Positions 59,398 through 63,998 of a stretch of DNA of 64,000 bases are shown here, piece by piece. This stretch comes from Lachnospiraceae bacterium. Its GTDB lineage: Bacteria; Bacillota; Clostridia; Lachnospirales; Lachnospiraceae. Both the position numbers and the translations under genes were made by a program. Each line of letters opens with the position of its first letter. Position 1 is the first letter of the stretch. The stretch covers positions 40,396 to 104,395 of the forward strand of contig JAAWEK010000009.1 of assembly GCA_022794265.1 (NCBI GenBank), read 5' to 3'. The notes beneath the pieces are model-generated. The model did no database searches, was not told the DNA's origin, and saw only the letters and a program-made list of their open reading frames with translations.

Positions 59398-59446
59398 TAG
59401 TGGCTAATAAGATATAATCATCTTACAAAGAAAAGAGGTGCTAATT

Positions 59447-59731
59447 ATGCCACAGAATTACACTCCCGAATTTAAAAAGAAGATCGTCCGCCTCCGTCTG
59501 GAGGAAGGACGCACCATTAACATCATCACCACGGAATACAGCATTTCCAAAGAGACCATCCGCCGTTGGTGCAATGAGTTGAAAAAAGAATGCCAGACAA
59601 GCCCCGATACGAAAACAGAGTATGATAACATGAAAGAGATGCTTAATCTCAAAAGAGAAAACGAGGAGCTTCGAAAGGAGAACCTATTCTTAAAAAAAGC
59701 AGCGGCATTCTTCGCAAAGGAAATCGATTAG
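59447..59731 (+). CDS. IS3-family transposase OrfA (helix-turn-helix)
   Basis: 94 aa: PQNYTPEFKKKIVRLRLEEG, helix-turn-helix ISKETIRRWC, then a leucine-zipper-like NLKRENEELRKENLFLKK. GAGGTG lies 6 bases before ATG 59447. OrfA appears intact, but its OrfB partner downstream is cut off after about 40 codons, so the element is dead unless helped in trans. Its orientation is opposite to that of the OrfB at the right edge of the window. Confidence 0.85.
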   Translation: MPQNYTPEFKKKIVRLRLEEGRTINIITTEYSISKETIRRWCNELKKECQTSPDTKTEYDNMKEMLNLKRENEELRKENLFLKKAAAFFAKEID

Positions 59732-60034: not shown

Positions 60035-60105
60035 GAAAAAAAGATACTGTTACCTGCATTCTTATTGTCATTCGTCAACGAAAGTCTGGTAACAGTACCT
60101 TTTTT
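60035..60105. terminator. Terminator of the toxin-immunity-NADAR operon
   Basis: TACTGTTACC pairs with GGTAACAGTA across about 34 bases, flanked by A6 and T6, so it works on both strands. It lies 40 bases beyond the NADAR stop codon. Confidence 0.8.
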
Positions 60106-60146: not shown

Positions 60147-60575
60147 TTAAAGTTTTTCTCTCACTTCCGTCAATATAATTCCAAGCATATTTTCCCCAGA
60201 ACCATCTTTACCACATCCCCAATAATAATCATTGGATGTATTTTCGATTATGGTCTCTTTTCCAGTAGATAATAATACATTTTTAATCTCTTCGTTTTGT
60301 TTAAACTTCGCCAATACTGCATTTCGCATGACATCAGCTTTGACTTCTTCCCAATCAGCTCTTAATGGTAAATCTCTATTTCTTCCCATCTCTGCTGCTT
60401 TCATAGGATTGTCAAGCAAACGAATCATCTCTTCATACTCAGTTCCACAAAATTTCTGTGCTTGAAAATAATGTTCACTAGTCATCCACCATTTTCCATC
60501 TAACTCAAAGCCATAATGTGCAAAATTTGAAAAACAACCATATTCATCATTAATTTTGTAAAAATATATTGCCAT
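60147..60575 (-). CDS. NADAR-family (YbiA-like) ADP-ribose-guanosine glycohydrolase
   Basis: 142 aa, full length for the family. Motifs: GCFSNFAHYGFEL, MTSEHYFQAQKF with the catalytic-region Glu, and NDYYWGCGKDGSGENMLG. NADAR proteins are N-glycosidases; members paired with DarT1 remove ADP-ribose from guanosine in DNA. It starts 5 bases after the putative immunity gene and ends before a terminator, so it is the third gene of the toxin operon. I infer a protective role against the transferase encoded upstream. A role in riboflavin-pathway clean-up is the alternative. Confidence 0.85.
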   Translation of the reverse strand: MAIYFYKINDEYGCFSNFAHYGFELDGKWWMTSEHYFQAQKFCGTEYEEMIRLLDNPMKAAEMGRNRDLPLRADWEEVKADVMRNAVLAKFKQNEEIKNVLLSTGKETIIENTSNDYYWGCGKDGSGENMLGIILTEVREKL

Positions 60576-60579
60576 ATTA

Positions 60580-60987
60580 TTATCCCCTTAAGCTACATGT
60601 CCATTCTTCAAAATATTCTAATTGTTCCTGTATTGTTGCATATTCATCTATTGAACAAGAATCAAATATATCAACTAGTGAATTCATTTTAGCCTGCTCT
60701 CCATGTATTAATGTATACGCATTTCGTCCTGCACCCATACATAATAACATTCCAGATGGATAAACATTTTTACAACAGCCTTTACATAACAATTTAATAT
60801 TCGATTTTTCAAGTTCTTCCCTTATTTTTATTAATGTATCAAAATAATTATCTCCTTCCTTTTCTAACACTAATTCACCTAGAGAAAACCTGATTGTAAC
60901 ACTATCTTCATTTTCTGTTAATTCAATTAATGCATTTCTATCTTGTTCCTTTTCTATGCATATAACACTACATATTTCTTTTTCCAT
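60580..60987 (-). CDS. Putative immunity protein of the Rhs toxin
   Basis: 135 aa, acidic, soluble, no signal. Contains a Cys-rich stretch CKGCCKNVYPSGMLLCMG and a C-terminal acidic helix (EQLEYFEEWTCSL). The toxin stop and this ATG overlap in TGATG, and the toxin's last Gly codons (GGAGGA) serve as its ribosome site, a tight coupling typical of toxin-immunity pairs. I recognise no named Imm family. Strongly AT-rich compared with the Rhs core. Confidence 0.7.
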   Translation of the reverse strand: MEKEICSVICIEKEQDRNALIELTENEDSVTIRFSLGELVLEKEGDNYFDTLIKIREELEKSNIKLLCKGCCKNVYPSGMLLCMGAGRNAYTLIHGEQAKMNSLVDIFDSCSIDEYATIQEQLEYFEEWTCSLRG

Positions 60988-61601
60988 CAATTTCCTCCAA
61001 AATTCGGATTAGGAATAAAATCTCCTATGATTTTTCCACCTTGTTTCTTATACGCGCCAACAATTTCAGATGGCTTTATTCCACCTGGTATTGAAAATTC
61101 CATTTGCTCTGGGAAATATGCACCTGCTCCATATGTGCTATTTATATCAACATAATTATCGGTTTGTATTACATATACATAACCATTTTTACCAGCAAAC
61201 CCTGTAGCAATTGCTTTATCTCCAGAAGTAGATACAAAATTTCCAGCAGTTGTATTACTTTTAGTATGTAATAGTGCAGCATTATGTGTCCCCTTCGGTT
61301 CAAATCCGTTTTTGAATACGTCATCTAGAACTACACTAGCCCTATCACCTCTAAATAACGTCTTAGTCTTACTACCACTCTCAACCCCCATACACCTACT
61401 CTGCCCATTGGGATCCACATACTTCACCGGATTATTCCCCTCATACGCATACAGATTCAGCCCGTCCCCATGATACCCGTCCATCTGGGTAAATCTTCCA
61501 ATCACTGGATTATAATACCGCGCACGTAAATAATACTGCCCCGTTACACCGTCATACATCTCCCCGGTAAACCGGTAACGGTTCACCGCCTGCTCCGACA
61601 A
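60987..61601 (-). CDS. Rhs C-terminal fragment carrying an ADP-ribosyltransferase-like toxin domain
   Basis: 204 codons from a TTG. Residues 1-66 are the conserved Rhs end (RYRFTGEMYDGVTGQYYLRA, GNNPVKYVDPNGQ). Residues 70-204 are the variable toxin tip. It has the ART R-S-E pattern: LFRGD (R84), FVSTS (124-126) and EQMEFSIPGGI with Gln166 and Glu168, a QxE pair as in pierisin/scabin and C3-type transferases. GC drops sharply at the junction near 61395. An upstream TGA at 61635 cuts it off from the Rhs core, so it is an orphan toxin module unless expressed internally. Confidence 0.78.
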   Translation of the reverse strand: MSEQAVNRYRFTGEMYDGVTGQYYLRARYYNPVIGRFTQMDGYHGDGLNLYAYEGNNPVKYVDPNGQSRCMGVESGSKTKTLFRGDRASVVLDDVFKNGFEPKGTHNAALLHTKSNTTAGNFVSTSGDKAIATGFAGKNGYVYVIQTDNYVDINSTYGAGAYFPEQMEFSIPGGIKPSEIVGAYKKQGGKIIGDFIPNPNFGGN

Positions 61602-62127
61602 ATCCGTCGTATTTCCAAAAGAGTCATATCTGTATCAGCACAGAATTCTCTCTTCCAGTGTTCCCGGAGTTTCATACTCATTTCCCGCCAGCACATGGGT
61701 AATACTGCCCAGCCGGTCACTGGCATAATGATAATATGTTCTGGCACTTTCACAGTCTGAAGCCACCAGTCTTCCGTTTCCACAGATATAACGGGTAATT
61801 CCCCGCTCCTCTTCTTCCTCATTCGCCACATCCCGGCCGCTTTGGAAACCAGACGCCCACAGACATCATATTCATAACGGTAGCAGATGCCACCGCCACT
61901 TGCCTGTATCAGCCTTCCATCTGGAGTATACCGGTAGGAATGGAATTCCACCTGTTTCTTTTTTTCCCGCTCTTCCGGGTCTCTGTCCGGTTCCGCAACG
62001 ATAGTTCCGCAGCAGTTTTCTTCCCTGCCGCTTTCCATCCTTATTCTGGCACGCTCCTCCAGAATATTTCCAAACACATCATTTGAAAAAACACACTTTT
62101 CTAAGCCGATACTCAAATCTGCTTAAA
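61602..62127 (-). pseudogene. Decayed Rhs/YD-repeat core
   Basis: Reads NDVFGNILEERARIRMESG and YRYTPDGRLIQASGGG, YRYEYDVCGRLVSK in one frame, then shifts by one base near 61840 into GITRYICGNGRLVASD and YHYASDRLGSITHVLAGN, and ends at an in-frame TGA (61635) before YRYDSFGNTTDLSEQ. These are YD repeats and the RHS core. The 5' part of the gene is missing beyond 62127. Frameshift plus stop indicate decay. Confidence 0.8.
62082..62127. repeat. 46-bp direct repeat, copy 2
   Basis: Same orientation and 44 of 46 positions identical to 58751-58796. Here it encodes the first visible Rhs residues (SIGLEKCVFS on the minus strand), suggesting that copy 1 is a scar of another Rhs copy or of recombination. 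Confidence 0.75.
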
Positions 62128-62558: not shown

Positions 62559-63053
62559 TTACCCCTGCATTTCTAAGTCCTGCGTATCTTCTTTTAGCTG
62601 GGGCATTCTGTATTCTGTCTGGGTTTTCAGCATTCCATAGATGATACAAATCAAGCGTCTGAAAATGCATATCAACGCCTGTTTTGATGCCTTTCCTTCT
62701 TTTATTCTTCTCTCATAATAGTCTCGAAATACTGGATTTCTCGGTACACCTTTGGATGACACCTGTATCATCTGAATAGCAAGAAAATATATCGTTGACT
62801 GTAATCTTCGATTACCTTCTTTTCTCTTTTCTGTTTTCTCACTATTAGAGGATGAGATTTTCAATGGTGCTATTGCTGCAAACTGTGCCAGCTTGGATGC
62901 ACTTTTGAATCGTCTTACATCACCAATCTCGGATACAATCTTAGCCGCTGTGATAACATTTACCCCCGGAATTGTGGTAAGGGTACAACCCATCTTGTTA
63001 TACAATTCTTCGATTGCCTTATCCATCTCTTTCAACTGTTCTGATATTGTCAA
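62559..63053 (-). pseudogene. IS110-family transposase, C-terminal half only
   Basis: 164 codons covering the Transposase_20 domain: GCTLTTIPGVNVITAAKIVSEIG, FKSASKLAQFAAIAPL, SSSNSEKTEKRKEGNRRLQS and the helical C-terminus (given in parts). The N-terminal DEDD RuvC-like domain is absent; the frame is cut at about 63055-63066, where the IS3 element begins. It was probably broken by that insertion. Confidence 0.8.
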
Positions 63054-63089: not shown

Positions 63090-63998
63090 CTATGCCGCAA
63101 TACCCGTAGATTCATAATATCTCTGTCGTTTAATCATAGGAGGAAGCCCGTCATTAGCAGAGCATATCCTCCTGTTATTCCAATAGCTAGTGAAGTATCT
63201 CCATATGATGGTCCTTAGCTCCTCTATGGTCATGCTCTCGGTATCATAACGGTTATAGAGAAGCTCATCCTTCATCCGTGCCCACATACTCTCGCAGCGG
63301 GCATTGTCATGGCATCGTCCTCCGGCGCTGTTCATGCTCTGGGATATGCCATATTTTGAAATCGCTTTGCGGTAGGTTTCGCTGGTGTACTGTGTTCCTC
63401 TGTCAGAGTGGATGACCGCTCCCCTGAGCGCAGGATAGGAACGGATGGCGTTATCCAAGGTCTGTTTGCACAATGAAGCTTTCATGTTCGTATCCATTGA
63501 AAGACCAAGGACAGCAGCATCGAAACAGTCAAATATGGCAGACACATAAAGTTTTCCGTCTTTTGCCTTGATTTCGGTTATGTCTGTGACACATTTTTTC
63601 AACGGCTCCGCAGATGCGAAATCCCTTTTCAGCAGGTCATCGGATTTACGCGCTTCCCGGTCAGCTTTGGTAATTCCGTTTGGTTTCCGTTTCGGATGAT
63701 GGCTTAAGCCTATTTCCTTCATGACGCGATAAACCGTCCGCTCGCCCGGGATATGTACGTCGTCCGGATGTTTTAAAAGCAATGCCTGATACATACGGAT
63801 TCTTCCATAAGTGTCATTGCATTCGTCCTCCGACGCGATTTCTCGCATGGCATCGGCTAGGTCCTGATAGTTCCATGGGCGGTCTTTGTTTGTCAGATAT
63901 TTGTAAAATCCCTGTCGGGTTACTTTCAGCATCCGGCAGTAGAAAGAAAGCTTCCCCTTGATAACGCCGTCTTCGGTTTTTATGGCAATGAACATCAT
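63090..63998 (-). CDS. IS3-family (IS150 group) transposase OrfB, running to the window edge
   Basis: 302 codons. HTH_21-like N-terminus (FYCRMLKVTRQGFYKYL), then the rve integrase core with D in VTDITE, D in HSDRGTQYTS and E in CHDNARCESMWARMK; all three catalytic acids are present. OrfB is normally made by frameshift from OrfA, which must lie beyond position 64000. The right end of the element is near 63066, inside the IS110 remnant. Confidence 0.9.
   Translation of the reverse strand: MMFIAIKTEDGVIKGKLSFYCRMLKVTRQGFYKYLTNKDRPWNYQDLADAMREIASEDECNDTYGRIRMYQALLLKHPDDVHIPGERTVYRVMKEIGLSHHPKRKPNGITKADREARKSDDLLKRDFASAEPLKKCVTDITEIKAKDGKLYVSAIFDCFDAAVLGLSMDTNMKASLCKQTLDNAIRSYPALRGAVIHSDRGTQYTSETYRKAISKYGISQSMNSAGGRCHDNARCESMWARMKDELLYNRYDTESMTIEELRTIIWRYFTSYWNNRRICSANDGLPPMIKRQRYYESTGIAA

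What the first reader, a model, noticed from the sequence alone, without database searches (positions are those of the whole stretch)
60147..61601. ADP-ribosyltransferase-like Rhs toxin encoded with its own NADAR ADP-ribose-removing enzyme
Seen: a three-gene minus-strand operon (toxin tip, small acidic protein, NADAR) with a 1-base overlap and a 5-base gap, ended by a terminator. The toxin has R84, S124-T125-S126 and the QxE pair Gln166/Glu168. Known: QxE transferases of the pierisin/scabin type modify guanine bases, and NADAR proteins paired with DarT1 remove ADP-ribose from guanosine. Inference: the NADAR reverses the toxin's modification, adding an enzymatic immunity layer to the binding-type immunity protein. 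I do not know of a described Rhs-ART plus NADAR cassette of this form.
Basis: partly seen in the sequence, partly recalled or inferred. Interest (0 to 1): 0.87.

Follow-up and report, generated by a model that had tools for sequence, protein, structure and literature searches.

The report
Toxin cassette with two-layer self-protection
A movable bacterial toxin cassette appears to carry two different self-protection genes, one that would plug the toxin and one that would wipe off the chemical mark the toxin makes, and relatives of the cassette occur in distant bacteria.

Summary
The three genes are real. The toxin tip (window 60990-61379, minus) is a Scabin/pierisin-type ADP-ribosyltransferase with a QxE motif; its best match among solved structures is TreX. 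The small acidic protein is a homologue of TriX, the immunity protein in the same PDB entry. The third gene is a YbiA-type NADAR with its catalytic residues intact.

The new evidence is genomic. Against C. porci, similarity rises at the toxin and falls after the NADAR although the Rhs cores differ, so the genes moved as one unit. A related NADAR (70-77% identical) follows a different QxE toxin and a different small gene in two more genomes. Six of six readable NADAR-linked toxins are QxE; three intact TriX-type relatives without NADAR are ExE or DxE; a decayed QxE copy also lacks it.

Best reading: a binder plus an enzyme that erases guanine ADP-ribosylation. The chemistry is untested, and this copy sits on a broken Rhs core, probably a silent orphan. 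Precedents: Bxa/Bsi/BAH and YarT/YbiA.

The parts
61602..62082 (-). Remnant of an Rhs core, out of frame with the toxin tip and shortened by an internal deletion
   Evidence: Two blocks 96.5% and 97.6% identical to the intact paralogue L003 (G000:C30); ORF 61583-62116 in another frame, RHS_repeat E 5.2e-4, just under its cut-off
61380..61601 (-). End of the Rhs core in frame with the toxin (residues 1-74 of the 204-aa ORF)
   Evidence: TIGR03696 Rhs_assc_core, residues 5-67, E 1.6e-20; DNA nearly identical to L003 down to 61352
60990..61379 (-). ADP-ribosyltransferase toxin domain, R-S-E class, QxE (R84, S124-T125-S126, Q166, E168)
   Evidence: PF22596 Scabin-like E 2.6e-13; TreX 8s2m_B E 2.7e-13, ScARP 5zj4 E 7e-7; residues
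60580..60987 (-). TriX-like immunity protein, 135 aa, pI 4.5
   Evidence: TriX 8s2m_A E 2e-7; aligned homologues; pI
60147..60575 (-). NADAR (YbiA-type), predicted guanine de-ADP-ribosylase; E34, K41, E111 conserved
   Evidence: PF08719 E 1.4e-39; TIGR02464 E 1.2e-44; catalytic columns
60151..61352 (-). Extent of the exchanged cassette (toxin domain + TriX-like + NADAR)
   Evidence: Left border against own-genome paralogue L003, right border against C. porci L001; GC 32.4% against 49.2% in the core
60037..60105 (-). Long-loop hairpin with T run, probable transcription terminator
   Evidence: 18-nt arms, 33-nt loop; z -4.87; similar 13-nt hairpin after the NADAR in L029

Best explanation
This is a polymorphic-toxin cassette of an Rhs system: a base-modifying ADP-ribosyltransferase tip (QxE, pierisin/ScARP type) followed by two immunity genes of different kinds. 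The TriX-like protein binds the toxin and blocks it (inferred from homology to the TreX/TriX pair). The NADAR enzyme removes ADP-ribose from guanine that escaped toxin has already modified, in nucleotides, DNA or RNA (inferred from NADAR biochemistry and from the QxE signature). The three genes travel together between Rhs cores. In this genome the cassette sits on a broken core, so today it is probably a silent orphan whose immunity genes may still protect against relatives carrying the same toxin.
For: Family assignment of all three proteins. Triplet in the same order in L001, L019 and L013; L013 and L019 ORFs. Cassette border at the NADAR end: against C. porci, DNA identity is 50-70% in the core bins and 34% in the bin at the toxin start, 50-94% (mostly 76-94%) through toxin, TriX-like gene and NADAR, then 32-40% after it. 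GC 32.4% against 49.2% in the core. The NADAR is the only one found in this genome. The same NADAR type follows another QxE toxin with another small gene in L030 and L102; that toxin is distantly related (E 8e-4) to RhsF-CT of Chromobacterium violaceum (PDB 9ZDM), reported to ADP-ribosylate RNA in vitro (PMC13324451, section 7). Six cassette NADARs form one clade, support 100/96, among 75 NADARs. Six of six readable NADAR-linked toxins have QxE. NADARs including YbiA reverse ScARP-made guanosine ADP-ribosylation in DNA and RNA (passages).
Against: No activity has been measured. QxE is not proof of guanine: C3 enzymes with QxE modify asparagine of proteins. A decayed QxE copy with its TriX-like gene (L020) has no NADAR within about 1.5 kb, and a distant QxE relative (L027) has neither partner. 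The toxin in L013 is truncated. NADAR activity in vitro does not guarantee protection in cells: E. coli YbiA failed to rescue DarT1 or YarT. NADAR does not remove the 2'-OH RNA mark of RhsP2. The predicted structure was unusable. The Rhs core here is broken.
Confidence: 0.68

Rival explanations
1. The NADAR is a passenger: a YbiA-like gene for riboflavin-intermediate clean-up or phage defence that hitch-hikes at the edge of an Rhs cassette and has nothing to do with the toxin.
For: NADARs are common and diverse: 29 of 397 genomes of the family have one at E <= 1e-10. The protein also matches an anti-phage NADAR model (NF053876), below its cut-off, and the riboflavin N-glycosidase model TIGR02464 above its cut-off.
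Against: It is inside the exchanged unit, recurs directly after the immunity gene in six loci with two toxin types, and 0 of 27 other family NADAR loci have an ART, TriX-like, type-B or Rhs-core hit nearby (phmmer E <= 0.05, flanks about 1.5 kb, some cut by contig ends).
Confidence: 0.12
2. The QxE toxin modifies a protein side chain (asparagine or glutamine, as C3 does), and the NADAR removes that or acts elsewhere.
For: C3 uses the same QxE geometry on asparagine (passage). MTX, a pierisin relative, targets EF-Tu (passage).
Against: The nearest QxE relatives by sequence with known targets, ScARP and Scabin, modify guanine; NADARs tested in the papers I saw act on guanosine ADP-ribose and not on the thymidine, phosphate-end or 2'-OH RNA marks tested.
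Confidence: 0.12
3. This copy is a dead or immunity-only relic: the toxin is not made, and the two downstream genes serve as stand-alone protection against neighbours that carry the live cassette.
For: Broken Rhs core, TTG start without an obvious ribosome-binding site, insertion-sequence genes on both sides. An intact, nearly identical Rhs core with a different tip exists in the genome.
Against: All three reading frames of the cassette are open, with residues and start/stop spacing kept, so decay of the cassette itself is not visible. This reading is about the present copy and does not conflict with the best explanation of the cassette.
Confidence: 0.55

Closest known systems
TreX/TriX of Xenorhabdus bovienii (PDB 8s2m, 8s2n, 9gco)
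   Same: Best sequence match in the PDB for both the toxin domain and the immunity protein
   Different: TreX has E-A-E where this toxin has Q-M-E (alignment). Whether a NADAR follows TriX in Xenorhabdus could not be checked; the TreX paper (PMC11606950) is not held, only its title was seen
Bxa with Bsi and BAH (Bacteroides stercoris prophage)
   Same: One ART toxin, one binding immunity protein, one ADP-ribose-removing enzyme, side by side (PMC11699363, abstract and passages)
   Different: Bxa modifies arginine of proteins and its eraser is an ARH1-type hydrolase; MuF-type prophage toxin, not Rhs
YarT/YbiA of myxobacteria
   Same: ART toxin neutralised by a YbiA-family NADAR encoded next to it (PMC11125620, passages)
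   Different: YarT is a stand-alone toxin of the HYD1 clade with an H-Y-E motif, two genes, no TriX-like partner, no Rhs core
DarT1-NADAR (DarTG1)
   Same: Guanine ART paired with a NADAR that reverses it (PMC11543638, passages and section 12)
   Different: Toxin is DarT, not R-S-E/Scabin-like; the NADAR there is of the BC4488 type with catalytic Asp, here Glu
Imm-ARG with R-S-E ART polymorphic toxins
   Same: Enzymatic immunity by removing ADP-ribose; described in 2012 as the only known enzymatic immunity protein (PMC3482391, passages)
   Different: ADP-ribosylglycohydrolase fold, not NADAR; the words DUF1768 and YbiA have 0 occurrences in the held part of that paper
RhsF/RhsFi of Chromobacterium violaceum (PDB 9ZDM)
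   Same: Distant relative of the type-B toxin that shares the NADAR (E 8e-4); ADP-ribosylates RNA in vitro
   Different: Aligned motif is D-Q-E rather than Q-Q-E; the paper has 0 occurrences of NADAR

Membership tests
Scabin/pierisin-type R-S-E ADP-ribosyltransferase | Family profile match above curated cut-off | tested here: met
   PF22596 50.4 bits, cut-off 27
Scabin/pierisin-type R-S-E ADP-ribosyltransferase | R, STS and ARTT loop X-X-aromatic-X-X-Q-X-E | tested here: met
   R84, S124-S126, A161 Y162 F163 P164 E165 Q166 M167 E168; loop definition in PMC7827354
Scabin/pierisin-type R-S-E ADP-ribosyltransferase | ART fold | tested here: inconclusive
   AlphaFold2 from two sequences, pLDDT 38.7; fold rests on homology to solved structures
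Scabin/pierisin-type R-S-E ADP-ribosyltransferase | Modifies guanine N2 | not testable with these tools
   Needs biochemistry
TriX-like immunity protein | Homology to TriX and position directly after a TreX-like toxin | tested here: met
   E 2e-7; 1-base overlap
TriX-like immunity protein | Binds and blocks the toxin | not testable with these tools
NADAR, YbiA subfamily | Profile match and catalytic Glu/Lys/Glu | tested here: met
   PF08719 136.4 bits, cut-off 35.1; E34, K41, E111 aligned to E43, K50, E125 of the Phytophthora enzyme
NADAR, YbiA subfamily | Removes ADP-ribose from guanine | not testable with these tools
   Shown for other NADARs
DarT1-NADAR toxin-antitoxin | DarT toxin and BC4488-type NADAR with Asp | tested here: not met
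   Toxin is Scabin-like; NADAR has Glu
Binder-plus-eraser double immunity (Bxa type) | Non-enzymatic immunity gene and ADP-ribose hydrolase gene both beside one ART toxin | tested here: met
   Gene order here and in L001, L019, L013; functions inferred
Working Rhs effector | Intact Rhs core joined in frame to the toxin | tested here: not met
   Core out of frame and with an internal deletion in this copy; in L001 and L019 the toxin is in frame with 569- and 496-aa Rhs frames that run off the locus

The most novel reading that the evidence does not exclude
NADAR is a portable eraser module for base-modifying polymorphic toxins: one NADAR lineage has been passed between unrelated toxin/binder pairs, is kept only where the toxin is of the QxE kind, and gives general protection against many guanine-modifying toxins while the binder gives protection against one.
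Probability: 0.42. Interest if true: 0.78.

Novelty: new variant of a known kind. Interest (0 to 1): 0.64.

Why it matters
Immunity to a toxin is usually described as one tight-fitting plug. Here the cassette seems to carry a plug and a repair enzyme, and the repair enzyme is the part that recurs with two different toxins. If true, it gives an in-cell job to YbiA-type NADARs, whose physiological role is described as poorly understood (PMC11125620 abstract), makes the toxin's target predictable from the neighbouring gene, and suggests that genomes with a NADAR may resist a whole class of weapons.

Tried and rejected
Structure prediction of the toxin domain was run once, from two sequences (window and L001); pLDDT 38.7, so no fold search was made with it. 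Independent capture of NADAR by the Methylobacterium cassette was considered: the tree keeps L013 apart (0% of 200 bootstrap trees unite the seven), but an AU test does not reject one clade (p 0.36), and it also does not reject one clade for the type-A rows window, L001 and L019 (p 0.354), so neither independent origin nor swapping of NADAR between types is claimed as proven. The bootstrap of that tree had not fully settled.

The QxE association is small and the loci are related: 6 of 6 against 0 of 3 gives Fisher p 0.012; with the decayed L020 counted, 6 of 7 against 0 of 3, p 0.033; with the distant L027 counted as well, 6 of 8 against 0 of 3, p 0.061. L029 was left out of these counts because its contig begins inside the NADAR and the toxin cannot be seen. 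The chance estimate (about 4e-5 for a NADAR within 1.5 kb) assumes an average genome size and is rough.

Coverage limits. TriX-like searches: 4 of 397 family genomes, 9 of 392 order genomes, 1 of 398 phylum genomes (profile A1), 4 of 101 genomes of one genus, with overlapping draws; 8 plasmid records, of which 6 were opened; 0 phage records; none in viral contigs. Toxin-domain searches: 1 locus in genome contigs; 16 plasmid records, of which 4 were looked at (L013, L017, L026, L027); 9 phage records, all Paenibacillus, none opened. NADAR: 21 plasmid records at E <= 1e-20, of which 6 were looked at; 43 viral loci, none with a toxin or immunity hit of these types. Ten TriX-like loci without a recognised ART (L010, L011, L014, L015, L016, L018, L021, L022, L023, L058) have no NADAR hit either; L024, found by phmmer only, is a further one. 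Literature: searches found no paper describing an Rhs ART plus NADAR cassette; the library lacks most subscription papers, the TreX paper and the 2012 NADAR paper by de Souza and Aravind was not read.

Full report
What is there. On the minus strand, window 61601-60147 holds three open reading frames: a 204-aa frame, a small acidic protein and a NADAR protein. The first two share one base; the second and third are 4 bases apart, not 5.

The first frame is not a whole gene. Residues 5-67 are the end of an Rhs core (TIGR03696, E 1.6e-20). The rest is an ADP-ribosyltransferase domain: Pfam Scabin-like E 2.6e-13; among solved structures TreX E 2.7e-13, ScARP E 7e-7, Scabin about 2e-6 to 9e-6, pierisin-1 1.5e-3. 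The Rhs core upstream is out of frame. The genome (2,877,891 bases, 34 contigs) has a nearly identical Rhs core on contig C30, in an open frame of 1819 aa with a different tip. Window and paralogue are 96.5% and 97.6% identical over two blocks, with an internal deletion in the window copy, and lose all similarity from about 61352 on, where the toxin begins.

The second protein matches TriX (E 2e-7), the immunity protein in PDB entry 8s2m, whose other chain is TreX. The third is a NADAR (E 1.4e-39), 159.6 bits against E. coli YbiA. Its E34, K41 and E111 line up with E43, K50 and E125 of the Phytophthora enzyme, residues that coordinate ADP-ribose; the equivalents in E. coli C7 NADAR were shown to matter by mutation. 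It is the only NADAR found in this genome.

Does the triplet recur? Yes. Three more loci have the toxin or its remnant with a TriX-like gene and an intact or partly intact motif but no NADAR: L009, L017 and L026; a fourth, L020, has a decayed toxin, a TriX-like gene and no NADAR. The examined stretch is about 1.5 kb each side for L009 and L020 and about 4 kb for L017 and L026.

Is NADAR part of the mobile unit? In 50-base bins, the window and C. porci are 50-70% identical in the Rhs core and 34% in the bin just before the toxin. From 61351 to about 60151 nearly all bins lie between 74% and 94%, with one at 50%. Just beyond the NADAR stop they fall to 32-40%. GC is 49.2% in the core and 32.4% in the cassette. 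So toxin, TriX-like gene and NADAR moved as one piece.

A second toxin with the same NADAR. Searching the family with this NADAR gave 31 places in 29 of 397 genomes. Three score above 250 bits (this one; G125, cut by a contig start; G166); the next best scores 87. In G166 (L030) the NADAR, 77% identical, follows an Rhs protein with another toxin tip (ending ...WQQEVS..., QxE) and a different 99-aa protein. The same type-B trio, with a 70% identical NADAR, is on a Priestia koreensis plasmid (L102). The type-B toxin is distantly related (E 8e-4) to RhsF-CT of Chromobacterium violaceum, PDB 9ZDM, reported to ADP-ribosylate RNA in vitro (PMC13324451, section 7). Against 27 other NADAR loci of the family no ART, TriX-like, type-B or Rhs-core hit was found nearby; one of the 31 places had no locus to examine. 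In a tree of 75 NADARs the six Bacillota cassette NADARs (window, L029, L001, L019, L030, L102) form one clade (100/96) that holds both toxin types; L013 lies outside, but the data do not reject one clade for all seven (p 0.36) nor one clade for the type-A rows (p 0.354).

Which toxins carry a NADAR? The sixth position of the ARTT loop is Q in all six readable NADAR-linked toxins (window, L001, L019, L013, L030, L102). It is E or D in the three intact TriX-type relatives without NADAR (L026 E, L017 E, L009 D) and E in TreX, whose neighbourhood could not be examined. Against this, L020 (decayed) and the distant L027 are Q without NADAR. Position six decides the target: in ScARP, Q162 contacts guanine and W159 stacks on it, while in C3 a Q contacts asparagine (PMC7827354, passages). 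In the window the aromatic position is F163.

Mechanism. Shown here: gene content, motifs, cassette borders, recurrence. From the literature: NADARs of several kinds remove ADP-ribose from guanosine in DNA and RNA made by ScARP, and do not act on thymidine or 2'-OH marks (PMC11125620 and PMC11833690, passages). Inferred: the TriX-like protein blocks the toxin; the NADAR repairs what the toxin has done; together they are a plug and an eraser. The same logic with other chemistry is published for Bxa, whose neighbours Bsi and BAH bind the toxin and remove its arginine mark (PMC11699363, abstract and passages). A caution from the same field: in-vitro activity of a NADAR did not ensure rescue in cells.

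Status of this copy. With a broken core and no obvious start signal for the toxin, this looks like an orphan tip of the kind that Rhs loci store (general knowledge of Rhs systems, recalled). The cassette's own frames are intact, so it could protect against relatives or return to use by recombination with the intact core; neither was tested.

Verdict. A real and recurring arrangement, not found in the papers I could search (the TreX paper was not held). It is a new variant of a known kind: double immunity with a NADAR as the eraser, and one NADAR type shared by two toxin types.

Noticed in passing
L003 (G000:C30), 1-2409: Intact Rhs frame with nearly the same core as the window and a different toxin tip and small downstream gene; a likely recombination partner for the orphan cassette.
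   Followed up: partly
L026 4001-8393 (Agrobacterium larrymoorei plasmid): Rhs toxin with E-L-E motif and a TriX-like gene, then an IS66 element and, on the other strand, an ADP-ribosylglycohydrolase (PF03747 E 5.3e-47). Possibly the arginine-type counterpart of NADAR.
   Followed up: partly
L013 (Methylobacterium aquaticum plasmid pMaq22A_1p), 516-9692: Repeated Rhs core pieces with different tips and small genes between them; the ART-TriX-NADAR trio is one of these displaced tips.
   Followed up: partly
L029 (G125) 1-1010: NADAR 90% identical to the window's at a contig edge, followed by the same hairpin and an Rhs-like fragment also found downstream in the window (60515-59824, 83.9% DNA identity).
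   Followed up: partly
L108 1465-3401 (G633): A different NADAR (52% identical) followed by an ADP-ribosylglycohydrolase gene, without an ART hit.
   Followed up: no
L010 1024-1476, L011 1372-1857 and eight or nine other loci: TriX-like proteins with no recognised ADP-ribosyltransferase nearby; possible orphan immunity genes or partners of another toxin.
   Followed up: no
window 62559-63053, 63090-63998, 59438-59731: IS110-type and integrase-core transposase genes or pieces on both sides of the cassette.
   Followed up: no
phage records: Nine Paenibacillus phage records hold an ART-like match at about 31% identity annotated as toxin or RICIN-domain protein; not opened.
   Followed up: no
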